Source: Symploca sp. SIO3C6
GTDB lineage: Bacteria > Cyanobacteriota > Cyanobacteriia > Cyanobacteriales > Coleofasciculaceae
DNA: 64,000 nucleotides
Direction of reading: 5' to 3'
NCBI GenBank assembly: GCA_010692425.1
Contig: JAAHHJ010000001.1
Location: 186,001 to 250,000, forward strand
The notes below the pieces were generated by a model. It was not told the DNA's origin, searched no databases, and was given only the letters and a program-made list of their open reading frames with translations. Positions 3,409-33,688 of this stretch are shown one piece after another (the first letter of the stretch is position 1; each line of letters begins with the position of its first letter). The position numbers were made by a program, and so were the translations under genes.

Positions 3409-4125
3409 TTACTGCTCAGTGACTTCGGAAGCTCCTGCTGATGTTGAATTAATGTTGTCTTCTGGAGTTACATTTACTGAATAATCGGACTCTTCTTCCT
3501 CGCTTTGCCACCAATTTTGACGATAAATTAACTCTAGCTCACTTCCAGCCTTGCGGAAAACTTTTACCTGATTGTATTGAAAAGCTTGAAATAGTCGATA
3601 GAATGCCAGACTGATAATCGCCACAATCAAGCCTGCAGCTGTACTAATCAGGGATTCCCCAATACCTTGAGTTACTCCATCTGTAGAACCTGTGCCCAAA
3701 TCAGAAAGCCTAATTGAACCCAAAGAGTTAATTAAGCCTAACACCGTACCCAGCAACCCCAGTAGTGGAGACAGAGCAATTACAGCTTCTAGAATTTTGT
3801 CCCCTCGCCGCATCGAAGCTAACTCCTCATCGGCACTTGCTTCTAGAGCCAGTCGAAATACTTCCGGATTAGGGTTAGAAAGCTTTAAAGGAGCATAAAG
3901 GTATCGCCCGATGGGCAGCCTGCGTGCTTTCATAACAGTCTCTTTTGCCTTGTGTAAGTTGCTAATTGCTGCATCCAGTACACGATTGACAACGGCTTCT
4001 TCCTTGAGGGAGATGATTGCCCAAAAGCAAATACGCTCAAGGATCACGCCTACAGCCAGGATTGATAAAGCCAATAGTGGCCACATCACTACCCCGCCCT
4101 TCTCAAAGATTTCAACAATATTCAC
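3409..4125 (-). CDS. exbB: ExbB/TolQ/MotA family proton channel protein
   Basis: 238 residues with the three-helix layout of the MotA/TolQ/ExbB family: helix 1 near residues 13-35 ([18 protein letters not shown]), then a cytoplasmic loop and two helices around 115-140 ([18 protein letters not shown]) and 155-180. The LGLLGTVLG motif is characteristic. The start is GTG at 4125, preceded by a GGGAGGT ribosome binding site about 12 bases upstream. It forms a proton-driven stator with the downstream ExbD. The substrate is unknown; cyanobacterial pairs of this kind serve TonB-dependent uptake or envelope functions. Confidence 0.9.
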
Positions 4126-9766: not shown

Positions 9767-9796
9767 CCCACACCGAATCATAGATTACGGTGTAGG
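9767..9796 (-). ncRNA. right-end hairpin of the tnpB element (candidate omega-RNA 3' scaffold)
   Basis: On the tnpB strand, CCTACACCG (9796-9788, inside the last codons) pairs with CGGTGTGGG (9775-9767) around a 12-base loop that contains the stop codon. In IS200/IS605 elements the guide RNA of TnpB comes from the right end and overlaps the tnpB 3' end, with the guide copied from the sequence just outside. The structure is seen; the RNA assignment is inference. Confidence 0.4.
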
Positions 9797-11161
9797 CTTC
9801 TGGCTCCGCAAAGATTCCAGAACTTCCTTCGAGGTACTGTTGGTAGTAGAAGCAACTACTACTAGATTCCCTCTACGGCGTTTTATAGTGGGGAACATGC
9901 CCAGCCCCACTCGCTTTAAGTTGAGTGCACTATTGACATCGCGCTCAACAAGCAGATTCTCTTTCTCGTCGTACCACTCTCTGATGCCACAATCGGTGAA
10001 CACGAACTCGTCTCTGTAACTTAAAAGTTGAGAGGTATAAGCGGGGTTGCACTTTCTCGTTACTGCTCCAGCTTTTGAGGCTATGTAGTCCAGCACTGAG
10101 AAAAACTGACCGAATGCAGCATCAAGCCACGACTTGTTCAATCCGGATTTGACGGATTGACCATTGGGCAAATACTTCCCGTTCTTGTCCTGTTTGGCTT
10201 GGTTTCGTTTGGTTAAATTCTTGAGCTTTAAGTCTTCGTAGAAGAACACATATTTGCCTGAGCGTACCAACTCATTAGCTGTATTGTAGGCATGGTCTTT
10301 CCTTGCTCTTGCTATTCGTTGATGTTCTCTGCTCTGGCGCTTGGCAAGCAAGCGGCGAGATTTTGAACCTTTTTTCTTGAGCGATTTTCGCCTAGATACT
10401 TTAGCTAGCCTATCTTGAGACTTCCGAAAAGACTTGAGTGACGGCAGTTTGGTATTATCGGAGGTGGCTAGATAATCATCCTTGTGCAATACCGCGTCCA
10501 TTCCCATCGAGTTATCCCAAGTTGGAACAATCTTGTCAGGGCTGAACACTGGTACAGTTGGATTTTCTAGTACCAGCGAGGTATGCCAACCATCAGCCTT
10601 CTTAGTCAGAAGAAGGTTTTTAAGCTTAAACCCATCAGGTAATAAGCGATGCAACCGAATTTTTAACCATCCAGAAAGCTTAGCTATAGAAATCCATAAG
10701 CAACGTTTTTCAATTCTTTGGATAGTTATTGCCTGCCCTTCAATCTTAAGTGTGCGGTATTGTGCCGCATTTTTGAAGCGAGGTTTACCACTTCGTTTAC
10801 CATTTCTGTCCCCTTTGACAAAGCGTTCAAAAGCTTTCTTTGTCCTGTTGCAAACGTCTTGCAAGGTCTGAGATGGCAAGCGGGTAAAGTCAAGCAGTTC
10901 TCCGGAATGGTAGACCAGCGTTAGGTCTTTTTTCTTGCCTGGTAGAAGCTTTTTCTGAGAGTAGTAGTCTGGTTTGTCTTTGAGTTCGGGGAGATGGCAA
11001 ATCAAGGGGCAGGAATTAAGTGCACATCGATTCTGTTCCCACCATTGAAACCTTTCGCCTAGCTGCCAGTTGTACCAGTACTGCGCCAATCTACGCCAGT
11101 AGTTTAACTCTAGCTTTTGTGTCGTATTTGGATATGCGCGGTACTGATAGTTTAACAACAC
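9785..11161 (-). CDS. tnpB: IS605-type TnpB (OrfB) RNA-guided nuclease-like transposase accessory protein
   Basis: 458 residues from the GTG at 11161, chosen because AAGGAGG sits eight bases upstream; the GTG at 11170 overlaps that site and is unlikely. The N-terminal part has the TnpB pattern (LLNYQYRAYPNTTQK, RLPSQTLQDVCNRTKKAF, GKPRFK). RuvC catalytic acids are retained: D222 (GMD), E309 (FFYEDLKLKNL) and D408 (ERDVNSALNL). The zinc finger that normally sits between the second and third has only a lone Cys pair left (CNPAYTSQ, TDCGI) and not the two CxxC knuckles. There is no TnpA partner, so mobility would need one in trans. The gene interrupts the spacing between chlI and the mla genes. 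Confidence 0.88.
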   Translation of the reverse strand: MLLNYQYRAYPNTTQKLELNYWRRLAQYWYNWQLGERFQWWEQNRCALNSCPLICHLPELKDKPDYYSQKKLLPGKKKDLTLVYHSGELLDFTRLPSQTLQDVCNRTKKAFERFVKGDRNGKRSGKPRFKNAAQYRTLKIEGQAITIQRIEKRCLWISIAKLSGWLKIRLHRLLPDGFKLKNLLLTKKADGWHTSLVLENPTVPVFSPDKIVPTWDNSMGMDAVLHKDDYLATSDNTKLPSLKSFRKSQDRLAKVSRRKSLKKKGSKSRRLLAKRQSREHQRIARARKDHAYNTANELVRSGKYVFFYEDLKLKNLTKRNQAKQDKNGKYLPNGQSVKSGLNKSWLDAAFGQFFSVLDYIASKAGAVTRKCNPAYTSQLLSYRDEFVFTDCGIREWYDEKENLLVERDVNSALNLKRVGLGMFPTIKRRRGNLVVVASTTNSTSKEVLESLRSQKPTP

Positions 11162-11253
11162 AGGTCTCACCTCCTTCTTTTTATTATCGTTTTACCCATT
11201 GCAATGCAACAATACCGCATGACATTTGATTAGGTGGCTGCCCCACTTACACA

Positions 11254-11351
11254 GGCAATTCATGAGGGGCTGTCGCACCAAATTCATTTCGGTGCGTTTA
11301 AACGCCCCGTCCCACTCTGACCCTCCGGGTACAGACGTGGGATGAATTGCC
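11254..11351. repeat. nested palindromic structure upstream of tnpB (probable left end)
   Basis: An outer inverted repeat GGCAATTCAT (11254-11263) / ATGAATTGCC (11342-11351) encloses two inner hairpins: GCACC (11275-11279) / GGTGC (11291-11295), and TCCCAC-TCTG-ACCC / GGGT-CAGA-GTGGGA (11310-11342), the latter broken only by single-base bulges. This could form a branched structure. It begins eight bases from the chlI stop. Likely the left end of the tnpB element; an alternative is a chlI 3' end structure. Confidence 0.6.
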
Positions 11352-11358
11352 GGACAAG

Positions 11359-12435
11359 CTAAGTCGCGCTATTATCCTCCGACGACTCCTCTAATCCAAA
11401 AACCCGGCTAAAGGCTTTTTGTACTTTATAGCCTGAATCAATTGATTCGAGAGGGTCTTTGCGTAGCCGATGGCGTAGACTTAAGGTAATCACGCGGCGG
11501 ATATCTTCAACTGTAACTTCCTGACGTCCTTCAAAAGCTGCCAGTGCTTTGGCTGCTCGGTTTGTAACAATATCGCCCCGTAGCCCATCCACGTCTAGTT
11601 CTGAACAGACTTCGGAAATCTTCACTCGTAAATCGTAGTCCATCCCAACTTTCGGAAGTCGCTCTTGAGCCATAACTATCCGCTTCTGTAATTCTTCTTG
11701 AGCTGCGTGGTGCTTTTGAATGTATTCCTGTGGTTTTTGGTCGAATTCTGCCCTTTCTTCTACTATCTGCACTCGTAGGGCTGGCTCTTTCACAGTGTGG
11801 ATTTCTGCGTGCATACCGAAACGGTCAAGTAGCTGTGGTCTTAGTTCCCCTTCTTCTGGGTTGCCTGAACCGACTAACACAAAGCGTGCTGGGTGACGAA
11901 TGGAAATTCCTTCCCGTTCCACTGTGTTCCAGCCGCTGGCAGCTGAATCCAACAGTACATCTACTAAGTGGTCGTCTAATAGATTAACCTCGTCTACATA
12001 GAGGATACCACGATTAGCCTTGGCAAGGAGTCCTGGTTCAAAGGCTTTAACGCCTTCAGATAATGCTTTTTCAATATCAATGGTGCCGCAAACACGGTCT
12101 TCTGTTGCCCCTAAGGGCAAGTCAACCATAGATACCTTTTTCTTGACAATTGTCCTTGAGTGTGCTGAACCATTACCATTCATCCAGTCGGGTTCATTCG
12201 GGTCACTGTTGAAGGGGTCATCAGCAATTACGTCAATTTCTGGCAACAAGTCAGCCAATGCCCTAATGGTAGTAGACTTGCCTGTACCGCGATCGCCCAT
12301 AATCATTACCCCACCAATTTTGGGGTCAATTACATTCAGCAGTAGAGCCAGTTTCATTTCTTCCTGGCCGACAATAGCAGTGAAAGGAAATATTAAGCGG
12401 TGATCAGTCTTAGGCGCTGTGGCAGTCGGACTCAC
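11359..12435 (-). CDS. chlI: magnesium chelatase ATPase subunit I
   Basis: ChlI is the AAA+ subunit of the ChlI-ChlD-ChlH complex that inserts Mg2+ into protoporphyrin IX, the first committed step of chlorophyll synthesis. 358 residues: Walker A GDRGTGKS at 47-54, Walker B ([17 protein letters not shown]), the arginine-finger region ([13 protein letters not shown]) and sensor 2 ([20 protein letters not shown]). The start is GTG at 12435 ([17 protein letters not shown] follows), with only a weak ribosome binding site. A DUF429 gene lies upstream on the same strand and the tnpB element downstream. ChlD and ChlH are not in the window. Confidence 0.96.
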
Positions 12436-12471
12436 TTGGATTACCTGATAATGAGTTTTCGATGACGCTTA

Positions 12472-13254
12472 TCATTTTCCCACATTTAGATGCATCCTTT
12501 GGCTAGGTGCAGGAACGATAATGTACCCCTCAGCTTTGTTACCCAGTACCCAATTGCGCTCAATGCCCCAGTACCACCAATGGGCTGCTATATAAGCACA
12601 AATTAAACTATCAAGCTGGTCTTCGACTACTTTTAGGGCTGCACCTGTAGTAGTCATTTGTTCTAGTAGTGCATTATACATCAGATTTATGTTTATGGGT
12701 GAGTTGGAGAGGTTGAGAGTGGGTTCTAAAGTGGGCAAAAGATTAAGAATATATTGACAGAGCTTGATTAGTTCTGAGCGACGTTGGGCAAGTTTGCCTT
12801 TTTTGTATTTGAGGATGCGATTGAGACTAAATAAGTGTACTGTCGCTGGATGAGGATATACTTCGATTTGGAAACGTCCTGATTGTTTGGGCGAGATCGC
12901 TGGTGCGTGGGCAAAACCTTGTTTTTCTAGGCTCAGACCAAATTCTACGGTGCGCTGGGCAAAGGGGCGATTGAGGTTCGCCGGGTAGCAACCAGCATGA
13001 TAGCGACCAAAGTATTGGTGGGTGAGTCGATCCGGCAAGCGCATGCCCTTAGCATTAGGTATTAGCGTTGGAGCATCTACCGCAATCATGGCGGCTTCTG
13101 TGGACGAAACGCAATTTTCTACCCAACTCAGAATATCGGTAGTTGCCTGCCGTCGGTCTAAATCCAATAACTTTAGCTGTTGAGATGACCAACCTAGACA
13201 ACACAAGCCACTAGAGCCTGAACTCCAGCCTAAGTCAATTCCTAAAAATTTCAT
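12472..13254 (-). CDS. DUF429 family protein
   Basis: 260 residues. The N-terminus MKFLGIDLGWSSGSSGLCCL is an RNase-H-like/actin-like strand with GIDLGW, and DAPTL, RLPDRLTHQYF and EVYPHPA are typical DUF429 motifs, giving acidic residues suited to an RNase-H-like fold. The function is not established. The Met at 13254 is preferred over a GTG at 13269, because the AGGTGA stretch at the GTG serves better as ribosome binding site for the ATG. It ends 36 bases upstream of the chlI start. Confidence 0.8.
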   Translation of the reverse strand: MKFLGIDLGWSSGSSGLCCLGWSSQQLKLLDLDRRQATTDILSWVENCVSSTEAAMIAVDAPTLIPNAKGMRLPDRLTHQYFGRYHAGCYPANLNRPFAQRTVEFGLSLEKQGFAHAPAISPKQSGRFQIEVYPHPATVHLFSLNRILKYKKGKLAQRRSELIKLCQYILNLLPTLEPTLNLSNSPININLMYNALLEQMTTTGAALKVVEDQLDSLICAYIAAHWWYWGIERNWVLGNKAEGYIIVPAPSQRMHLNVGK

Positions 13255-13726
13255 TTTTTGTGATTTCACCTGTTGTTAGGTTGCTTAAATAAAGATGAGT
13301 CTTCAGTATTTAGCATGCTAATTTATCACCAACAAAATTCAAACCTACTGCTGTACAAGGGTTTTGTGTATTTAGAGCAAAAAATGAATTCTAAAAAACT
13401 CAGAGCTATACTGTATAGTGATTTGAAATAATAAAAACTGTTAGCTTAGCATAACAGGTACTGAAGGGCCATAAAGATTAATTTTTCTATCATTCATTTG
13501 TTAGTTGTGTTTTGCCCGTCTTAAACATGCTTAAGAAGCAAAAAAACCGTTGGTTTAGGTTTTGTTTTCTAGCTGAACAGACTATAATTATTAACTTGTA
13601 AGATAACTGTTGCTGATCAATTGATAAATTTTCGTTGATTGCTTATAAATCTTGCCGCGAGATAACGAGATAAGATTAAGTTTATCCTGATATTTAACAT
13701 AGCTTCTGTATAAAGGGACAACACCT
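13255..13726. other. intergenic region, about 470 bases
   Basis: AT-rich divergent spacer between the DUF429 gene and the outer-membrane protein gene. It holds a short palindrome CTATAC-T-GTATAG (13406-13418), which could be an operator or chance, and an imperfect AAAACC/GGTTTT inverted repeat near 13545-13565. No gene was seen. Confidence 0.4.
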
Positions 13727-15193
13727 TTGATCTGGAGACTATTTGTGCCAGCAGAGCCTGTTTCTAAATTTTCTCATCAAGATTTATTTTATGCTAATCA
13801 ATTATACAGAGGCGAAAATCAATCTAATACAACAGACTTATATCAAGAATTTAACTATAGGTTAAGTGTTTGTTTAAAGCCAGTTCCAAGTGTTGCTATT
13901 TTTGGTCTAGCAACACTTGCCTCCGGTAGTGTAACAGAACAAGTATTAGCATTAACTGAGCCTAGTGCAGTTTGGGAGTCAAAAAAAGTAAATCATTTGA
14001 CTTCTAGTGACTCTGATCAAGAACATGGGATGCAAGCAGCAAATCTCAAGAATGTGCAGAGTGCAATTGCCTTACCAGAATCAATAGTGGTACAGGAATT
14101 CACACTATCAGAGTTATCATTACCATTGCTTGAACAACAAAGAAAGGCAGAGGATAGAGGAAGAGATGGGGAGATGGGGGGATGGGCAGATGGGGGAAAA
14201 CAAGAGAGTGTGGGAAGAGGGAAGAGATGGGAAGGAGACGGGGGAATGAATGTATACAAAATTTCTACCACACCTCCCCGTCTTTCTTACTCCTCCGACA
14301 CTCCCCACACTCCCCAATCTATCCAGGGAGAGGGAGAGAGAGTTTATCTTTCTCTGGAAGCACCTGAATTTGAGAGTAATAGCACCGCCCAACCAGCAAC
14401 GGTGGTGTCAGAATTTCCAATTGCTCAACAAGAATTTTCTCCTTTACACCGTCAAAATGGTGATCAACTGCCATATCAACCGCAAAGGCTGCCTCTACTT
14501 CCCAATGAGCCAGAAAGAAAGCCTTATCAGGCTAATCCTAGCGTTACAATTATCAATCCATCTGCTTATGGTGCTTCTTGGGGTAATGCTGGAATTGGAA
14601 TTGGTTTTCAGGAGCGCACTCGTTTTAGTAATAAATCTGATGGAGTAGTAGGTGTTGGTATTGGTTTAGGTAATCCCCGTAAAAATGTTGGCTTAGAAGT
14701 GGGGATTGTAACTGTTGATTTATTAGGAGATACGCTAGAAGATGGAGCGATAAACTTAAAAATTCATCGGCAATTACCTAATGATTTTGCAGTTGCTGCT
14801 GGAGTGCAAGGAGCCATTACTTGGGGAAATACTGATGGTGGTTCTTCAGTTTATGGTGTAGTCAGTAAAAGGTTTGCTCTTAAGCAGGATCGAACCAAAT
14901 CTTTTAGTGAACTTCATGTATCAGCAGGAATTGGCGGTGGGCAATTTCGCTCTGAGTCTGATATCGATGATGGCGTCGATTCTGTGGGAGGATTTGGCAG
15001 TATAGCACTTCGCATTATTGAGCCAGTGAGTGCGATCGCAGAATGGACAGGTCAAGATCTTACAGTGGGATTGTCTGTAGTTCCCTTTCGGCAAATACCA
15101 TTAGTGATTGCTCCAGCAATTACTGATCTTACTGGCACAGCTGGTGATGGCAGCAGATTTATTCTTGGGGTTGGTTACGGCTTCTCTTGGTAA
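13727..15193 (+). CDS. outer-membrane beta-barrel-like protein with repeat-derived insertion
   Basis: 488 residues from a TTG at 13727; AAAGGG lies about 18 bases upstream. The first ~150 residues carry no clear signal peptide, except a weakly hydrophobic run (VAIFGLATLASGSVT). Residues about 145-205 are low complexity and come from purine-rich then pyrimidine-rich repeat DNA (see the repeat at 14155-14345). From about residue 285 (GASWGNAGIGIGFQERTRF) to the end, alternating Gly-rich amphipathic strands and a terminal aromatic (GVGYGFSW) fit an outer-membrane barrel. The function is unknown. A secreted CHAT protein gene follows 189 bases downstream. Confidence 0.65.
   Translation: MIWRLFVPAEPVSKFSHQDLFYANQLYRGENQSNTTDLYQEFNYRLSVCLKPVPSVAIFGLATLASGSVTEQVLALTEPSAVWESKKVNHLTSSDSDQEHGMQAANLKNVQSAIALPESIVVQEFTLSELSLPLLEQQRKAEDRGRDGEMGGWADGGKQESVGRGKRWEGDGGMNVYKISTTPPRLSYSSDTPHTPQSIQGEGERVYLSLEAPEFESNSTAQPATVVSEFPIAQQEFSPLHRQNGDQLPYQPQRLPLLPNEPERKPYQANPSVTIINPSAYGASWGNAGIGIGFQERTRFSNKSDGVVGVGIGLGNPRKNVGLEVGIVTVDLLGDTLEDGAINLKIHRQLPNDFAVAAGVQGAITWGNTDGGSSVYGVVSKRFALKQDRTKSFSELHVSAGIGGGQFRSESDIDDGVDSVGGFGSIALRIIEPVSAIAEWTGQDLTVGLSVVPFRQIPLVIAPAITDLTGTAGDGSRFILGVGYGFSW
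14155..14345. repeat. foldback low-complexity repeat inserted in frame
   Basis: A purine-rich arm (about 14157-14250, units like GATGGGGA) is followed by a pyrimidine-rich arm (about 14270-14325, units like ACTCCCCAC) that is largely complementary. Similar G/A-rich runs occur at about 4280-4315 and 26215-26250. Here the element lies inside a reading frame without breaking it. Confidence 0.65.
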
Positions 15194-15277
15194 TTAAATA
15201 CTCCTGCTGGAAACTCCAAGAAATACAAGAAATAAATGATTTAATTGACGCCAGAAACACAACCTAAAGATTCATTT

Positions 15278-24096: not shown

Positions 24097-24232
24097 TATG
24101 GTTCATGGTTTATGGTTCATTGTTCATGGCTCATGGTTCATTGGGTTTGTATTCGACAGTTGTGGTATGCATTTCCAATGAACAATCAACAATCAACTAT
24201 GAGCAGTCTTTCCCCATGAACAATCAACAATC
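24097..24232. repeat. degenerate GTTCATGG/CAATGAACAATCAACAATC repeats
   Basis: Several imperfect copies of GGTTCATGGTTTATGGTTCATT (24100-24147) face copies of CAATGAACAATCAACAATC (24176-24232), with GGTTCATTGG and CCAATGAAC able to pair. A related arrangement occurs after the CHAT gene at about 17087-17142. A dispersed intergenic repeat family between convergent genes. Confidence 0.6.
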
Positions 24233-26177
24233 AATCAGCTTTATTAACAACTCTGATAAGTTTGTAGGCACCAGCACTGCCTAAATTAATATACTCGTTG
24301 GGCTGCAACTTTGTTTCCTTGAGTTCTTCAGACTTGAGCAGGATCACAAATGAGGATTGGGGCTTTTTGAGAGTTACTTTCTTAATGTGCGCCATGGCTT
24401 TTCTTTGTCGTGAAAAGTAATTAACTGGCTTCTGTGTGTAAAAAACCACACTGGGTTTTTCAAAGCCGATCATGATTAATTCTTCTCCTGGCTGCTCCAC
24501 CTGTGTAGCGATCGCAGATAATTGTCGTAGAGGCAGTTGACGCGCTTCATCCATGAGGAAGACCAGAGGCATCAACACCAAGATTAAAAATGCTATTAAT
24601 CCGACAAGATTTACACTCCAAAGCCAGCGCCACCAACGGCGTCGCCACAACAATACTCCTGTTAAAATAGCTGTTGCTCCCCAAATAAGACACCCTCTTA
24701 GTGGTAAACCAGATCTTTGCAGAAGCTCAGATAAGTTAGGAGCGGCTGGGTCATAGCCAAGTAGCTGAGAACCGTAAAAAATTACAGCAGCAATGACCAC
24801 CAGTAATATTAAATTAAAAATACCGCTAAACAGGATAGGATCAACCGTTCTAGAAGGCAAACAGACAAGGTTACTTTTATCTTTCTCCCCATCTCCCCAT
24901 CTCCCCATCTCCCCATCTCCCCATCTCCCCATCTCCCTTGCATAAGAGTTCCCATAATCACTCCACAATAAGGCTAGAAGAATTGCAGCTGCAGGCATCA
25001 AGGGCAGGACATAGCTTGGCAATTTAGTCACGGCAATGGTAAAAAAGCCAAAGATGCCAGTAAACCAAAACAGGGCAAATAGACCTAAATGAGTAGAGCG
25101 TGGTGCAGATTGCCAGCGCTTGCGCTGCCAAAAGCGTATTCTGGTAATTGCTATTGGCAAATAACTAGACCAAGGGGCAAAGCCAACTAGCACTACTAGG
25201 AAGTAAAAATACCAGGGAGCGCCGTGACCATTGACAATGCCAGTAAAGCGCTCAAAATTATGGTACCCAAAAAATGATTCGAGATAGTCATCTCTGTGGG
25301 CTATAGTTACCAAAATATACCAGGGCAGTGCTAAAGTTAGGATGATGATTAAGCCTCTAACTGGTCGCATCTCCCGCAAGACGTCCCAACCATTGCCCAA
25401 ATAGAGTACGAAGGCTCCAATGATGATTGCTGGTAGGACGATACCAACTGGTCCTTTAGCGAGGATAGCGAGAGCAATCAGTATGTAAAAGGCGAGATAC
25501 CATCTGTCTTTCGCTCTCGAGAATAGAGTTTTTTCTTTAACTTGCTCAGGTTGGGCGTATCCCAGGAAAAAACTCAGCAGAGCACAGCCCATACAGCCAG
25601 AGAGCAGCATATCAGAAACCCCGATTCGCGCCCAGACAATTGTGAGGGGATTAAAGGCAATTAGGGCAGAACCAATCCAGGCAGATAGCCACAGTTGCTG
25701 CTGTAAGTTGGTTATTTTCTCTAGGATATATTTATTCCTAACTTTACCATCTAATTGAGAATTAGGCAACTGAGTCAAGGCAGCAGGGCGGCACACCCCA
25801 TAGGATCTTAATGTATAGAAGCCTAAGACTGTTAAAGCGATCGCAGCCATGGCAGAAGGAAGTCGCACTGCCCATTCGTTAACCCCAATGAGCTTATAGC
25901 CAATAGCCATTAACCAATATACCAAGGGCGGCTTGTCAAAACGGGTATCATCATTAAAGTAGGGCGTGATCCAGTCGCCTGTTACTGTCATTTGGCGAGC
26001 AGCTTCGGCAAACAGGGGTTCAGTTTCATCAACTAAGCCTGTACTTCCCAAATGCCACAAAAAGGCTAACCAGCTAATCAAGAGCAACCAAATCACAGAA
26101 AACGCCCAGGCAATGGTTGGCTGTTGTTGCCAAGCTTTCCACCAAGTTGTTGCAATCCGATCAACCTTTAACTTCAT
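24231..26177 (-). CDS. ArnT/PMT-family membrane glycosyltransferase
   Basis: 648 residues, about 11-13 TM helices. The N-terminal region has the GT-C signature after TM1: DETEPLFAEAARQM with conserved acidic residues, TPYFNDDTRFDKPPLVYWLM and LPSAMAAIALT, matching the ArnT/PMT-2 family (polyprenyl-phosphate-sugar donors, periplasmic acceptor). The soluble C-terminus includes FEKPSVVFYTQKPVNYFSR. Residues about 415-432 (MGRWGDGE twice) are translated CTCCCCAT octamer DNA placed in a loop between TM helices, so length varies without disrupting membrane segments. The acceptor is unknown. Confidence 0.85.
   Translation of the reverse strand: MKLKVDRIATTWWKAWQQQPTIAWAFSVIWLLLISWLAFLWHLGSTGLVDETEPLFAEAARQMTVTGDWITPYFNDDTRFDKPPLVYWLMAIGYKLIGVNEWAVRLPSAMAAIALTVLGFYTLRSYGVCRPAALTQLPNSQLDGKVRNKYILEKITNLQQQLWLSAWIGSALIAFNPLTIVWARIGVSDMLLSGCMGCALLSFFLGYAQPEQVKEKTLFSRAKDRWYLAFYILIALAILAKGPVGIVLPAIIIGAFVLYLGNGWDVLREMRPVRGLIIILTLALPWYILVTIAHRDDYLESFFGYHNFERFTGIVNGHGAPWYFYFLVVLVGFAPWSSYLPIAITRIRFWQRKRWQSAPRSTHLGLFALFWFTGIFGFFTIAVTKLPSYVLPLMPAAAILLALLWSDYGNSYAREMGRWGDGEMGRWGDGEKDKSNLVCLPSRTVDPILFSGIFNLILLVVIAAVIFYGSQLLGYDPAAPNLSELLQRSGLPLRGCLIWGATAILTGVLLWRRRWWRWLWSVNLVGLIAFLILVLMPLVFLMDEARQLPLRQLSAIATQVEQPGEELIMIGFEKPSVVFYTQKPVNYFSRQRKAMAHIKKVTLKKPQSSFVILLKSEELKETKLQPNEYINLGSAGAYKLIRVVNKAD
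24885..24937. repeat. CTCCCCAT octamer array inside the glycosyltransferase gene
   Basis: About six tandem octamers. Because three octamers equal eight codons, expansion in multiples of three keeps frame, giving MGRWGDGE repeats on the coding (minus) strand. Confidence 0.9.
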
Positions 26178-28239: not shown

Positions 28240-31200
28240 CTATTGAATACCATCACATAATTTACTATCACTTTCTCCTAAATTCTGATTATTCTTCAGG
28301 TAATCCTTGATCCAATCACAGCCACGCACCAATAATTTATCGAGGTCTAATATATATTCATCATCTTGATCCTGCAAACGCCATAAAATAATTTTATTAT
28401 CATCACTAGCTGAAGCGAGCATTGCGCCATCTGGGCTGAAACTGACGCTATTAACCTTATCAGTATGACCCTTAAGGGTAGTAATTAGAGAGCCATCTTT
28501 ACTCCAAAGCTTCACTGTGTTGTCAGCACTAGTTGTAGCAATAGTCTCACTTGTTTTATCAAAGCTTAAACCGACAACACCATCGCTATGTCCATCAGTA
28601 TTTTCTAATTCAGAATTTTTTCCTAGAATTCCCAAAGGAGTTCCATCTGTATTCCAGAGTCTAACTGTGTTATCATAACTAGCAGTTGTTATGGTCTGCC
28701 CCTGCTGACCAAACCGGGCATCAAACACCCAACCATCATGACCAGAAATAGTGTCACTTAGAATAGCGTCTTCCACATTCCAGAGTTTAACTGTTTTATC
28801 CCAACTAGTTGAAGCTAGAGTTTGACCATCGGGACTAAAGCGCACACTCAAGACACCTTCTATATGGCCATCAGCAGAATTTCCTAAGGTTTTAACCTTG
28901 GTGCCATCACTCTTCCAAATTATCACTGTTCTGTCTTGACTACCAGAGGCAATTAGTTTACCATCAGGACTAAAAGTAACATCATTGACAGGAGCCCCAT
29001 GACCAGAGAGGGTTGTGATTAGCCTGCCTTCCCGACTCCAAAGCCTCACTGTGCGATCGCTACTGGCAGAAGCTAGAATTCTACCATCGGGAGAAAAACT
29101 TACACTTCTGACTACATCTCCATGACGTTGGTTAGTTTCGATGAGAGTTCCATCAGGTTTCCATAGCTTAACCGTTCTATCAGCACTAGCCGAAGCCAGC
29201 AACTTACCATCTGGAGAAAAGGCTACATCTAGAACTTGAGCTCGATGTTCTTGCAGGGGTATAGTTAACTCAGCTTCTCGTTCTAATTGCCACAGTTTGA
29301 CTGTGCGATCGCCTCCTGCTGAAACTAGCATTTTCCCATCATCATTAAAGCTCAAACTCCTTACTTGCGAACTATGTCCAGTTAAGGTACTTTTGAGAGT
29401 GCCATCTAGTTTCCAGATTTTGATGGTTTTGTCTTCACTAGCAGAAGCAACAGTTTTACCATCGTCACTAAAATCTACATCGAACACTCTTTTATTGTGA
29501 GCTCTAATTATTTTACTGTTACCATCTAGTTTCCAGAGTCTGATGGTTTGATCCCAACTAGCCGAAGCCAGAGTTTTACCATCTCGACTAAAGCTCAGAC
29601 CATAGACTCTAGCATTATGTCCCCTCAAAGTTCTAATCCATCTACCGTCTTTTTGCCACAATCTTACCGCCTTATCATCACTAGCTGAAGCGAGGATATT
29701 ACCCTCAGGGCTAAACTCTACATCCCTGACTGCGGCATTATGTCCTCTAATAGTTGTTACTAGAGTAACCTTAGTACCGTCAAGTTGCCAGATTTTCACG
29801 GTGGCATCTTCACTAGCAGAGGCAATTGTCTCTCCATCTGGAGAGAAACTCACATCATCAACTGGCTTTTCATGTCCTTCTAAAGTTGTAATGAGAGTGC
29901 CATCCGACTTCCAAATTTTTACCGTCTTATCATCGCTAGTAGAAGCAATCATACTACTATCATCGGAAAAACTCACTCCCAAAACTTGACCCTTATGTCC
30001 TTGCTTATTTCCTTCCAAATATCCTTTAATATCAGTAATTAGAGTACCATCCGGCTTCCAAAGCTTGATGGTATTATCTCCACTCACCGAGGCAATCATC
30101 TTGCCATCAGGACTAAAGCTAACATCCCAAATTAAACCCTCGTGACCATCAAAACGATTACGTTCTCTTACCAAATAAACTGCATTGAAAAGTGAAGTGA
30201 TAATTGATTTATATAGCGGTTTTTTATTTGCGTATTCCTGAATTTTTTGTTTGTGTTCAGGATATTTTTGGAGTTCCTTTCCAGCTCTGATTCCTTCTAT
30301 TAAAGCATCTAGAATTTGCTGAGAACTAAATAAAGCTTCTGAAGTTTTACTCAAAGATTTTAAACTTTCTGTTTCTGCTATCTCGGATGCTTCTACTGCC
30401 CGATTTTTGGCTTCTACTGCCGTCTTTGTAGCTTTTTCAGCCTCTCCTTGAGCTTTTTCAGCCTGTTTTTGAGCTTCTTCAGCCAGTTTAGTTTTTTGGA
30501 CAGCTTGCCAACCAAAAATAACAGAAGCAGTACAGGCTGCACTTACTAAGACAAGTAACACTTTTACAACTAATTGCTGCCTCCTTTCACGTTTTTCCTC
30601 AGCTTCAATTTCCTCTCTACTACTATTAATAAATTCTTTCTGCAAATTAGTTGGAGTAGGTTGTCTCTTATTTTGCTCTGCCTCCTGCAACCAAAATTGA
30701 GCAATAGAAAATTCACTACCTCGCAATAGCAAATCTTTATCTTTATCTTGTTGCTGCCACTCAAATGCTTGTTGCGACCATTTGGTATGACTTCTCACAT
30801 AATCTCTGTCTGTATCAACAGTTCTAACTAATTCACTAAAGTTAGCGTAAAAATCGCCATCATACTGATTAAAATCAATCCATTGAACCTTTCGCAATAC
30901 TGGATGCAATTCACTAGTTGAAACTTGTTGATGGAGAATAGTGATAAATCTTTTATTTAAACTCTGAGCATATTCCACCTCGTCTGCACAATAAGGGGAA
31001 TTTACAGATTTAGGGGAAATGATGAACAGGAAGTTATCGCTATTTTGGATTCCACGATAAATTTCTTCTTGAAAATTACTTCCTGGTGGAATACTTTCCT
31101 GGTCAAACCAAGTGGTTTTACCTTGTATTTGCAGTGCTTCGTTTAATTTTCTAGCGAAATCAGAATCAGCACGGGAATAGGAAATAAATACTTCTAGAGA

Positions 31201-32430
31201 TGATTCGACTGCTTGAGCACTGCTCGCTTCAATAAACTCTTTTTGTAATGGTAGAGGGGGATGATTATGACGCTTTCGATTTACCTTTAGCCAGTTTTGG
31301 TAATACTCTAGGTTATGTCCTCTCAACAATATGCTATAATTGCAATTTTGCCTCTCCCACTTGAGAGCTTTAACTAACAAAACTTTATGGTCTTCATAAT
31401 AGCGCTCATCTTCCTTTAAGACCTTTAATAACTTATCAAACTTGCGGTTATATACAGCTTGCTCTTGATGATTTTTTAAATCGATAAATTGTATTGCTTT
31501 GATATGGGAGGGAATACTGGTTAGTTCTGTAGGAGCAATTAATAGTGGAATAATACGTTTTTTTAAAGTCAAAGCATATTCAATCTCTTGCTGACAGTAT
31601 TTTGATTCTAAAGAATCAGGTGAAATTAAGTAAACTATGTTAGAAGCCCCTTCAATCCCGTGGTCTATTTCTTCCTGAAATTGAATGCCAGTTTGAATAT
31701 CAGTTTTATTAGTCCAAACCGTTAATCCATAACGTCTCAAACTCTTAGTAATTTTCTCCATAACCCCCCTATTATATTCGGAGTAGCTAAGAAATACCTG
31801 AGACATTAAGTTATTACCATTCTTGGTACTTTCTGTAATGAACTCACAGTGTAAATCAGTAGGAATACAAGGAGCTTGTTCTTTTTTAAATCTTCTTTTT
31901 AGCCAAGACTCTGCCTGTTTCCTCTCCTCTCCCACTAACAGATAATTATTTTGTTTTTGATTTCTTGCCCACTCTTGAGCTTTAACTAAAAATTTCGTAT
32001 GCTGTTGAACATAATCATTATGCTGCTGAATAAGTTTAGTTAAGCCCTCAAACGAATCTTCAAAATTATCTTTATCTTCTTGAAAATAAATCCAATTAAT
32101 TCTGCCAATAGTGGGGTGCATTTTATCCCAACAGTCACTAGGTTCAACGTGAAGCAGAGGAATAATACGCTTATTAAGTCTAATTGCTAATTCGATTTCT
32201 TTGAGACAATATTGAGATTTAACAGAATGGGGAGCAATGATAAAGACAAAGTTATGAGAGCGCTCGATACCATCATCAATTTGATTTTGAAAGTCTACCC
32301 CCAAAGGAATATCATTTTGGTCAAACCAAACCCTTAAGCCCCATTGAATCAACCTGTGGTGCAATTTAGTGGCAAATGCTTTAGAGTCTCTGCGACCATA
32401 GGATATGAAAGTATCAAAGAAACTTTTCAT
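28240..32430 (-). CDS. triple-TIR, 14-WD40 repeat membrane-anchored protein
   Basis: 1,396 residues. Three TIR domains (about 1-140, 210-345, 411-545), each starting with a [FV][IL]SYxxxx strand, a GxxxxQxxIxxGIxxS helix and a C-(x)2-E-[IV]-E segment that holds the likely catalytic Glu (YCLKEIELA, YCQQEIEYA, YCADEVEYA). Each is followed by the same ~65-residue helical linker (Y...H...A.EW...LLRG...WL...EFI.S), so the whole unit is triplicated. Then a TM helix (about 621-643, KVLLVLVSAACTASVIFGW), a coiled coil (KQAEKAQGEAEKATKTAVEA), and 14 WD40 repeats (about 759-1350), enough for two seven-blade propellers. TIR domains of this type can be NAD+ hydrolases; propellers would sense a partner. 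An isolated gene, convergent with glyK. Confidence 0.93.
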   Translation of the reverse strand: MKSFFDTFISYGRRDSKAFATKLHHRLIQWGLRVWFDQNDIPLGVDFQNQIDDGIERSHNFVFIIAPHSVKSQYCLKEIELAIRLNKRIIPLLHVEPSDCWDKMHPTIGRINWIYFQEDKDNFEDSFEGLTKLIQQHNDYVQQHTKFLVKAQEWARNQKQNNYLLVGEERKQAESWLKRRFKKEQAPCIPTDLHCEFITESTKNGNNLMSQVFLSYSEYNRGVMEKITKSLRRYGLTVWTNKTDIQTGIQFQEEIDHGIEGASNIVYLISPDSLESKYCQQEIEYALTLKKRIIPLLIAPTELTSIPSHIKAIQFIDLKNHQEQAVYNRKFDKLLKVLKEDERYYEDHKVLLVKALKWERQNCNYSILLRGHNLEYYQNWLKVNRKRHNHPPLPLQKEFIEASSAQAVESSLEVFISYSRADSDFARKLNEALQIQGKTTWFDQESIPPGSNFQEEIYRGIQNSDNFLFIISPKSVNSPYCADEVEYAQSLNKRFITILHQQVSTSELHPVLRKVQWIDFNQYDGDFYANFSELVRTVDTDRDYVRSHTKWSQQAFEWQQQDKDKDLLLRGSEFSIAQFWLQEAEQNKRQPTPTNLQKEFINSSREEIEAEEKRERRQQLVVKVLLVLVSAACTASVIFGWQAVQKTKLAEEAQKQAEKAQGEAEKATKTAVEAKNRAVEASEIAETESLKSLSKTSEALFSSQQILDALIEGIRAGKELQKYPEHKQKIQEYANKKPLYKSIITSLFNAVYLVRERNRFDGHEGLIWDVSFSPDGKMIASVSGDNTIKLWKPDGTLITDIKGYLEGNKQGHKGQVLGVSFSDDSSMIASTSDDKTVKIWKSDGTLITTLEGHEKPVDDVSFSPDGETIASASEDATVKIWQLDGTKVTLVTTIRGHNAAVRDVEFSPEGNILASASDDKAVRLWQKDGRWIRTLRGHNARVYGLSFSRDGKTLASASWDQTIRLWKLDGNSKIIRAHNKRVFDVDFSDDGKTVASASEDKTIKIWKLDGTLKSTLTGHSSQVRSLSFNDDGKMLVSAGGDRTVKLWQLEREAELTIPLQEHRAQVLDVAFSPDGKLLASASADRTVKLWKPDGTLIETNQRHGDVVRSVSFSPDGRILASASSDRTVRLWSREGRLITTLSGHGAPVNDVTFSPDGKLIASGSQDRTVIIWKSDGTKVKTLGNSADGHIEGVLSVRFSPDGQTLASTSWDKTVKLWNVEDAILSDTISGHDGWVFDARFGQQGQTITTASYDNTVRLWNTDGTPLGILGKNSELENTDGHSDGVVGLSFDKTSETIATTSADNTVKLWSKDGSLITTLKGHTDKVNSVSFSPDGAMLASASDDNKIILWRLQDQDDEYILDLDKLLVRGCDWIKDYLKNNQNLGESDSKLCDGIQ

Positions 32431-32743
32431 GTCTTTAGGGCTTTATGATTTCAATAGAACTGACAAAGGGTGAGTCTATCTGACTTTTAGCATTATAAAG
32501 TCTAAAAATGAGTCATTAACAGAGAGGCAAAAATATGCATAGGCAAGCAATCTAACTCATGTCACTAGCTAAAGTATCTCTCAGCAGTTTTTTGATAACA
32601 ATGTCACTAAAATAAAATTGCTTCCAGGCTGCAATAACTAACAAAATCAACTTCTACTTGCATTTATAGCAACTTTAAATTACAAAAACGCCTATAATAA
32701 TTTTCCGGAATCGGAAAATACTAGCGTGTATCCAAGACACATC
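32431..32743. other. divergent promoter region, about 310 bases
   Basis: AT-rich spacer between the divergent TIR-WD40 and DUF928 genes. No gene or convincing structure was seen. Confidence 0.4.
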
Positions 32744-33688
32744 ATGAATTACATCAAACTATTTTCACCAGGGAAAACTTTAGCAATGGCTTTGGTAATC
32801 CTAGGGGTATCTGGCAATAGCACCCTAGGAAACAACAGCTCGCGATTGCTAGCTGCATCCACTATGCCAGAGGTATCAACAGTGACAAACATCTACCTAC
32901 CAAGATCAAAACTTTTTAAATCAAAAGAACTTTTGGCTAAACTTCCACTAAACTCAAGCAAAACACTGGTACAAAAGCCAAAGACACATAACAACAAAAA
33001 TACATCTACTCAATCGCAAGCACTAGCAGGAAGTTACTTCAACACCCCAGAGCCACCAGCAGATCGAGGTACACCAGGCCACAGAGAAGGAGCGGCAAGT
33101 CGAGGGCAGAGAAAACTTCTTACCGCCCTAGTGCCAGCCTTTGAGGGAATTTCCGATGATCCTCTAAGTGAATCTGTCTTAGGTTTGACTCTAGAAGAGC
33201 GTCCAACTTTTTGGTTTTATGTTCCTAAACCATTGACACCTACAACAGAACTTGAGTTTATTCTCGAAGATGAGCAGGGTAATCAACTCTACCAGAGTTC
33301 ATTCACAGTTTCTAAAAACTCATCTGGTATAGTTTCTATCAAACTACCATCAACAGTCAAAGCTCTTGAGGTAGGTAAAATTTACTATTGGCACTTCAAA
33401 ACTTATTTGTATCCAAATTTTCCAACTTCTGTTGATGGCTGGGTGCAACGAGTGGCGTTGAAATCATCGCTTCAAAGCCAGTTGGAGCAAGCGACACCAA
33501 AACAAGAAGCTGCCATTTATGCTGCTAATGGTATTTGGTATGAGGCTATTACCTCTCTGGCTAAACTGCGCCGCCAGCATCCGGAAGATAAAGATCTCAG
33601 CGAAGATTGGAGCAAATTGTTACAGGATGTTCACCTGGAAGCGATTGCCCAAGAACCGATTGTTGATTGCTGCACTCCTCTCCGATAG
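32744..33688 (+). CDS. DUF928 secreted protein
   Basis: 314 residues from the ATG at 32744 (MNYIKLFSPGKTLAMALVIL); a GTG six codons earlier is less likely. The signal peptide ends near GVSGNSTLG. The mature domain has the DUF928 hallmarks: RGTPGHREGAASRG, LTALVP, GLTLEERPTFWFYVP, YYWHFK and a Cys-Cys near the C-terminus. This family is common in cyanobacteria, often beside CHAT or TIR-type proteins, and its role is unknown. It diverges from the TIR-WD40 gene. Confidence 0.85.
   Translation: MNYIKLFSPGKTLAMALVILGVSGNSTLGNNSSRLLAASTMPEVSTVTNIYLPRSKLFKSKELLAKLPLNSSKTLVQKPKTHNNKNTSTQSQALAGSYFNTPEPPADRGTPGHREGAASRGQRKLLTALVPAFEGISDDPLSESVLGLTLEERPTFWFYVPKPLTPTTELEFILEDEQGNQLYQSSFTVSKNSSGIVSIKLPSTVKALEVGKIYYWHFKTYLYPNFPTSVDGWVQRVALKSSLQSQLEQATPKQEAAIYAANGIWYEAITSLAKLRRQHPEDKDLSEDWSKLLQDVHLEAIAQEPIVDCCTPLR

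What the first reader, a model, noticed from the sequence alone, without database searches (positions are those of the whole stretch)
28240..32430. Triplicated TIR-linker unit fused to a TM helix, coiled coil and 14 WD40 repeats
Three TIR domains with the same following helical linker show a repeated module, each retaining a Glu in the C-x2-E segment. Double propeller, membrane anchor and coiled coil in one 1,396-residue chain suggest a large sensor whose clustering would bring TIRs together. Single-TIR WD40 proteins are known; the triple repeat of TIR plus linker is unusual.
Basis: partly seen in the sequence, partly recalled or inferred. Interest (0 to 1): 0.65.

Follow-up and report, generated by a model that had tools for sequence, protein, structure and literature searches.

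The report
Cyanobacterial membrane receptor with three TIRs
The gene encodes a 1,396-residue membrane protein with three immune-type TIR domains on one side of the membrane and a double WD40 propeller probably on the other; it belongs to a conserved but apparently undescribed cyanobacterial family that keeps the TIR triplet and swaps the sensor, much like a bacterial counterpart of Toll-like receptors.

Summary
One intact ORF (28240-32430, minus strand) encodes three TIR-linker units, one membrane helix, a helical stalk and 14 WD40 blades. The triplet is not a one-off. All 97 distinct relatives collected carry exactly three units, and each unit position forms its own clade, so the triplication predates the family. 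The own genome has five copies. Rarer one-unit and five-unit proteins also exist.

The three TIRs are not equivalent. The catalytic-type Glu is kept in 97/97 first, 93/97 second and 89/97 third TIRs, but the near-invariant 'WFD' Asp is lost from TIR2 across the family.

The sensor is exchangeable: WD40 in most members, CHASE2 in about a fifth. Positive-inside charge, CHASE2 use and paired cysteines after the membrane helix suggest cytosolic TIRs and an extracytoplasmic sensor.

Relatives, but not this gene, often sit beside LSDAT (TRPM-type SLOG) and SLATT/DUF4231 genes, far above chance. The most likely working is a transmembrane TIR receptor that makes an NAD+-derived signal. Enzyme activity, ligand and a role in defence are untested. 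I call it a new variant of a known kind.

The parts
28240..32430 (-). whole gene, 1396-aa triple-TIR / TM / WD40 protein
32023..32421 (-). TIR1 (residues 4-136); Glu78 in C-x2-E; 'WFD' Asp present; strong purifying selection (dN/dS 0.05)
   Evidence: matches SARM1 and SPARTA TIRs at Z about 19
31816..32022 (-). linker 1 (residues 137-205), three helices
31408..31803 (-). TIR2 (residues 210-341); Glu282 kept but 'WFD' reads WTN; dN/dS 0.17
31213..31407 (-). linker 2 (residues 342-406)
30808..31197 (-). TIR3 (residues 412-541); Glu484; 'WFD' Asp present; dN/dS 0.04
30607..30807 (-). linker 3 (residues 542-608)
30511..30573 (-). single transmembrane helix (about residues 620-640), basic residues on the N-terminal side
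30175..30510 (-). helical stalk (residues 641-752); little sequence constraint (dN/dS 0.94 over residues 611-757)
29275..30168 (-). WD40 blades 1-7, first propeller
28375..29268 (-). WD40 blades 8-14, second propeller
28243..28374 (-). C-terminal tail with the only two cysteines after the membrane helix (GC.W..DYL ... C)
32726..33688 (+). divergent neighbour, DUF928 (PF06051, E 1.1e-57); weak context evidence because the family is abundant

Best explanation
A one-component transmembrane TIR receptor. The three TIR-linker units lie in the cytosol, one helix crosses the membrane, and a stalk carries a double WD40 propeller outside the cytoplasm as the sensor. Binding of a ligand to the propeller is thought to rearrange or cluster chains through the stalk, bringing TIRs of one or several chains into the head-to-tail contacts that TIR enzymes need. 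TIR1 and TIR3 would be the catalytic units and TIR2 a modified, mainly structural unit that completes the composite sites. The output would be NAD+ cleavage giving an ADP-ribose-type signal. In relatives the signal would act on LSDAT (SLOG) and SLATT membrane proteins encoded next door; here it would act on copies elsewhere in the genome, or NAD+ would simply be depleted. Shown: domain order, age and fixity of the triplet, unit-specific conservation, exchangeable sensor, neighbour enrichment in relatives. Inferred: topology (from sequence statistics), catalysis, ligand, clustering, partner activation and a role in defence or controlled cell death.
For: Domain order and folds. All 97 distinct relatives have three units, and units 1, 2 and 3 are each monophyletic with support 1.0, 1.0 and 0.987. 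C-x2-E Glu in 97, 93 and 89 of 97. Purifying selection strongest on TIR1 and TIR3 (dN/dS 0.05, 0.04; TIR2 0.17; membrane helix plus stalk 0.94; WD40 0.31 and 0.22). The C-terminal sensor is WD40 or CHASE2 (CHASE2 E 1e-55 to 1e-56 in several members). Topology: basic residues before exceed those after the helix in 90 of 94, with 4 ties; cysteine density 1.14 per 100 aa before against 0.39 after in WD40 members, 38 of 61 with exactly two cysteines after the helix, nearly always a pair in the tail; CHASE2 is described as an extracellular type (PMC8195603). Partners: in genomes with the triplet, 6 of 17 LSDAT and 18 of 45 DUF4231 matches lie within 6 kb of it, against 0.08 and 0.25 expected. TIR products acting on SLOG and TM effectors are established for Thoeris (PMC11204291).
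Against: No activity, ligand or phenotype is known. The window gene itself has no LSDAT or SLATT neighbour; its neighbours are housekeeping or unrelated (nth, rseP, aat, DUF928). Five of the six LSDAT cases in the enrichment test come from one genus, so they are not independent, though other genera show the link. WD40 propellers outside the cytoplasm would be unexpected, and one helix plus composition is indirect proof of topology; the cysteine control rests mainly on one membrane-free WD40 protein with 14 cysteines. Keeping the Glu does not prove NADase activity.
Confidence: 0.42

Rival explanations
1. An intracellular sensor: the WD40 propellers and the TIRs both act on cytosolic phage or stress signals, and the hydrophobic helix only tethers the protein or loops back, as an NLR-like protein without an NTPase.
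For: The linker-TM-helix-WD40 part also occurs behind nSTAND1 in the same genome (L176), and related WRAP proteins are STAND sensors implicated in innate immunity (PMC9218822).
Against: A single strong membrane helix must put the two halves on opposite sides; charge bias, tail cysteine pair and CHASE2 members all point outward.
Confidence: 0.25
2. The TIRs are non-enzymatic scaffolds, as in Toll-like receptors and MyD88, recruiting other TIR proteins of the cell.
For: Twelve other TIR_2 matches above the cut-off lie elsewhere in the genome; TIR2 is altered family-wide.
Against: The catalytic-type Glu is invariant in TIR1 and nearly so in TIR3, with other core positions kept.
Confidence: 0.2
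3. A plain suicide NADase receptor: clustering depletes NAD+ directly, with no partner effector.
For: The window copy and most WD40 members have no LSDAT or SLATT gene nearby.
Against: The strong enrichment of LSDAT and SLATT/DUF4231 beside relatives.
Confidence: 0.2
4. A regulator of surface or secreted proteins, not a defence protein.
For: CHASE2-class members sit with DUF928 (13 of 19) and two-partner secretion genes; the window gene has a DUF928 neighbour.
Against: DUF928 is abundant, 10 to 35 copies in most of the related genomes listed, and the link is mainly to the CHASE2 class.
Confidence: 0.15

Closest known systems
Single-unit TIR-linker-WD40 proteins of cyanobacteria (L036-L040, L179)
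   Same: TIR, same linker, WD40; the Tolypothrix plasmid member also has a TM-like stretch and the tail cysteine pair
   Different: one unit instead of three; separate clade in the unit tree (support 0.954)
nSTAND1-TM-WD40 proteins (L176; nSTAND1 confirmed by Pfam in L174)
   Same: similar linker helices, then membrane helix and WD40 blades
   Different: STAND NTPase instead of the TIR triplet; linker similarity weak (E about 1e-5 to 1e-6)
WRAP propeller of Npun_R6612 (PDB 2YMU)
   Same: 14 WD40 blades folding as two 7-bladed propellers; sequence match E 1.8e-191
   Different: WRAP belongs to a STAND protein and its blades are nearly identical (PMC9218822); the two rings are placed differently in the model (rmsd 14 over 556 residues)
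Thoeris (ThsB TIR with ThsA SIR2-SLOG or TM-macro)
   Same: logic of a TIR signal producer and a SLOG or TM effector
   Different: no ThsA here; sensor and TIR in one membrane protein; partner of relatives is LSDAT/SLATT
Toll-like receptors
   Same: outside sensor, one membrane helix, cytosolic TIR (order along the chain reversed)
   Different: WD40 or CHASE2 instead of leucine-rich repeats; three TIRs; no shown common descent of the architecture
SARM1 and AbTir
   Same: TIR fold (Z 19 and 16.9) and Glu position
   Different: other sensors and architecture; activity untested here

Membership tests
TIR domain (Pfam TIR_2) | profile match and TIR fold | tested here: met
   three stretches and structural matches
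TIR NADase | conserved catalytic Glu | tested here: met
   E78, E282, E484; 97, 93, 89 of 97 in relatives
TIR NADase | NAD+ cleavage | not testable with these tools
   needs biochemistry
Thoeris | ThsA partner gene beside the TIR gene | tested here: not met
   PADLOC scan of eight window neighbours finds no ThsA
Thoeris | ThsB-type TIR protein at curated cut-off | tested here: not met
   ThcB4 model 112 bits against cut-off 220; PADLOC ThsB hits cover the TIR part only
NLR / STAND proteins | STAND NTPase domain | tested here: not met
   no NTPase among the Pfam matches shown; residues between linker 3 and WD40 are TM helix and stalk
WD40 double propeller (WRAP-like fold) | 14 blades in two 7-bladed rings | tested here: met
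   14 blades, model and 2YMU match
Triple-TIR receptor family (this report) | three units in fixed order followed by a membrane helix | tested here: met
   97 triplets; helix in 94 of 97
TIR with LSDAT/SLATT gene neighbourhood | LSDAT or SLATT/DUF4231 gene next to the TIR gene | tested here: not met
   absent in the window; the genome has one LSDAT on another contig (C13) and DUF4231 matches elsewhere

The most novel reading that the evidence does not exclude
Cyanobacteria have a family of true transmembrane TIR receptors: exchangeable extracytoplasmic sensors (WD40 or CHASE2) joined to a fixed cytosolic triple-TIR enzyme whose ADP-ribose-type product opens LSDAT/SLATT membrane effectors, in logic a bacterial counterpart of Toll-like receptors and TRPM2 combined.
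Probability: 0.25. Interest if true: 0.82.

Novelty: new variant of a known kind. Interest (0 to 1): 0.55.

Why it matters
The bacterial TIR systems known to me act on signals inside the cell. A conserved membrane receptor with a fixed triplet of TIRs and swappable outside sensors would show that bacteria also use TIRs for signals from outside, and would offer a simple system to test why TIRs must cluster. The unit-specific loss in TIR2 and the LSDAT/SLATT neighbours make direct, cheap predictions. The plasmid records that hold relatives call them only 'TIR domain-containing protein'.

Tried and rejected
A recent duplication of the units was rejected: 32-41% identity and one clade per unit position. 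A fourth TIR in members that showed a T-T-L pattern was rejected: it is a short insertion inside TIR1. A defence island around the window gene was rejected: neighbours are nth, rseP, aat, DUF928 and the like. Membership in Thoeris was rejected. DUF928 as a specific partner is weak because the family is abundant. Literature searches for triple TIR, TIR with CHASE2, TIR with LSDAT and SLATT, and bacterial Toll-like receptors found no description of this family in the held library; most subscription papers are not covered. Whether the linker alone matches a solved fold was not tested.

Full report
What is there. The minus-strand ORF 28240-32430 encodes 1396 residues without interruption. Pfam finds three TIR_2 domains and 14 WD40 repeats. 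The order is TIR1, linker 1, TIR2, linker 2, TIR3, linker 3, one membrane helix, a helical stalk, two WD40 propellers and a short tail. The units are 32-41% identical to one another. AlphaFold2 models of residues 1-659 (pLDDT 90, pTM 0.83) and 601-1396 (pLDDT 84, pTM 0.56) support TIR folds, three-helix linkers and two propellers. TIR1 matches SARM1 and SPARTA TIRs at Z about 19. The solved 14-blade cyanobacterial protein 2YMU is among the best matches of the propellers.

The triplet is a conserved family. The own genome holds five copies, on contigs C1, C146, C190, C228 and C249, with three linkers each; all 15 strong linker matches of the genome lie in them. Among 99 searched genomes (the window's own and relatives of the same order), 21 hold the triplet. 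A scan of GTDB species genomes found 215 encoding stretches, of which the best 80 were kept. Ten of 292 genomes drawn evenly from the phylum have it at E up to 1e-60, so it is patchy. It also occurs on a plasmid of Bernardetia, a Bacteroidota (45% identity, three TIRs, then membrane helix and helical stalk without a recognised sensor domain), and on a plasmid of Kovacikia. The full-length query favours triplets, so linkers were also counted with a linker profile alone: counts per genome are mostly multiples of three, with single-unit WD40 proteins besides. One protein has five units in the order 1-2-1-2-3 with a CHASE2-like C-terminus (L183; the C-terminus was read from sequence, not scanned).

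Age and roles of the units. In a tree of 291 units from 97 distinct proteins, the first, second and third units each form one clade (support 1.0, 1.0, 0.987), and seven single units form another. The C-x2-E Glu is kept in 97, 93 and 89 of 97. The Asp of 'WFD' is kept in 97 and 96 for units 1 and 3 but replaced in unit 2 (Asn 66, Ser 12 of 97). Against the ortholog in Symploca sp. SIO2E9, dN/dS is 0.05, 0.17 and 0.04 for TIR1-3, 0.94 for the membrane helix and stalk, and 0.31 and 0.22 for the two propellers. TIR2 is therefore probably a modified, mainly structural unit; that last step is inference.

The sensor is exchangeable. Most members carry WD40 (63 of 86 in the neighbour survey), 19 fall in a class of about 1,040-1,080 residues, and four differ. 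Members of the 19-strong class tested by Pfam (L087, L100, L068), and the Kovacikia plasmid protein, carry CHASE2; the rest of the class were assigned by length. One WD40 member ends in GUN4 (L061).

Topology. A strong helix follows linker 3 in 94 of 97 members. Lys plus Arg in the 15 residues before it exceed those after in 90 of 94, with 4 ties. In 61 complete WD40 members, cysteines fall from 1.14 to 0.39 per 100 residues after the helix; 38 have exactly two, nearly always a pair in the last 40 residues, and 53 have an even number. A WD40 protein without a clear membrane helix in one locus has 14 cysteines in that region. This pattern suits a disulfide-forming compartment. Together with CHASE2, described as an extracellular small-molecule receptor domain (PMC8195603), it supports TIRs inside and the sensor outside. 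It is statistical, not direct, evidence, and the sequences are related.

Neighbours. Within 7 kb, LSDAT_prok (PF18171, 'SLOG in TRPM, prokaryote') lies near 10 of 63 WD40 members and 4 of 19 of the CHASE2 class; SLATT near 5 WD40 members; DUF4231-type genes near 9 and 4. In Moorena the order is LSDAT, SLATT, triple TIR on one strand; in Dolichospermum LSDAT follows 21-207 bp downstream. In related genomes 6 of 17 LSDAT and 18 of 45 DUF4231 matches lie within 6 kb of a triplet against 0.08 and 0.25 expected; the cases are partly related by descent. The closest Moorena relatives of the window gene sit beside DUF4231-type genes. The window gene has none of these; its upstream neighbour is DUF928, and the genome has one LSDAT on another contig.

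Mechanism. In Thoeris, TIR proteins make ADP-ribose-type signals that SLOG or membrane effectors read (PMC11204291). By analogy, ligand binding outside would rearrange the TIR triplets, TIR1 and TIR3 would cleave NAD+, and the product would act on LSDAT/SLATT proteins, or NAD+ loss would itself stop the cell. That TRPM2 responds to ADP-ribose is reported (PMC7151227 abstract). That TIR enzymes need head-to-tail contacts between TIRs is established knowledge for SARM1 and AbTir (from memory, not tested here). Three TIRs in one chain could prebuild composite active sites; this is inference.

Relation to known families. The linker, membrane helix and WD40 part resemble those behind nSTAND1 in the same genome, so the protein looks like that chassis with the NTPase replaced by a TIR triplet. 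[quoted passage not shown] The triple-TIR receptor form was not found in the papers searched. It is a new variant of a known kind: known domains, a fixed and old triplet, and a receptor-like layout that is not, as far as could be searched, described.

Noticed in passing
L183:3434-7960 (G278:C8): A 1,509-aa relative with five TIR-linker units in the order 1-2-1-2-3 followed by a CHASE2-like region: the unit 1-2 pair has been duplicated.
   Followed up: partly
L115:4444-6756: DUF4231/SLATT_3 membrane region fused to a C39-like peptidase and a GH19 chitinase-type domain, 108 bp from a triple-TIR gene; related genes flank the Moorena copies.
   Followed up: partly
L177:6989-9496 (Bernardetia plasmid): A triple-TIR protein in Bacteroidota that ends after a membrane helix and a long helical stalk, with no recognised sensor domain.
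   Followed up: partly
L065:5583-9827 and 10029-14402: In Symploca sp. SIO2E9 the ortholog is followed by a tandem second triple-TIR gene that is absent at this place in the window.
   Followed up: partly
window 24884-24937: Tandem octamer CCCCATCT repeats lie in frame inside the ORF 24231-26177; related repeats occur near 15273 in the window and in L065 at 3637-3771.
   Followed up: no
L179:6001-9216 (Tolypothrix plasmid): Single-TIR WD40 protein whose blades are nearly identical, suggesting recent blade amplification.
   Followed up: no
window 9785-11170: ORF that looks like a transposon-associated TnpB-type protein from its sequence; not searched.
   Followed up: no
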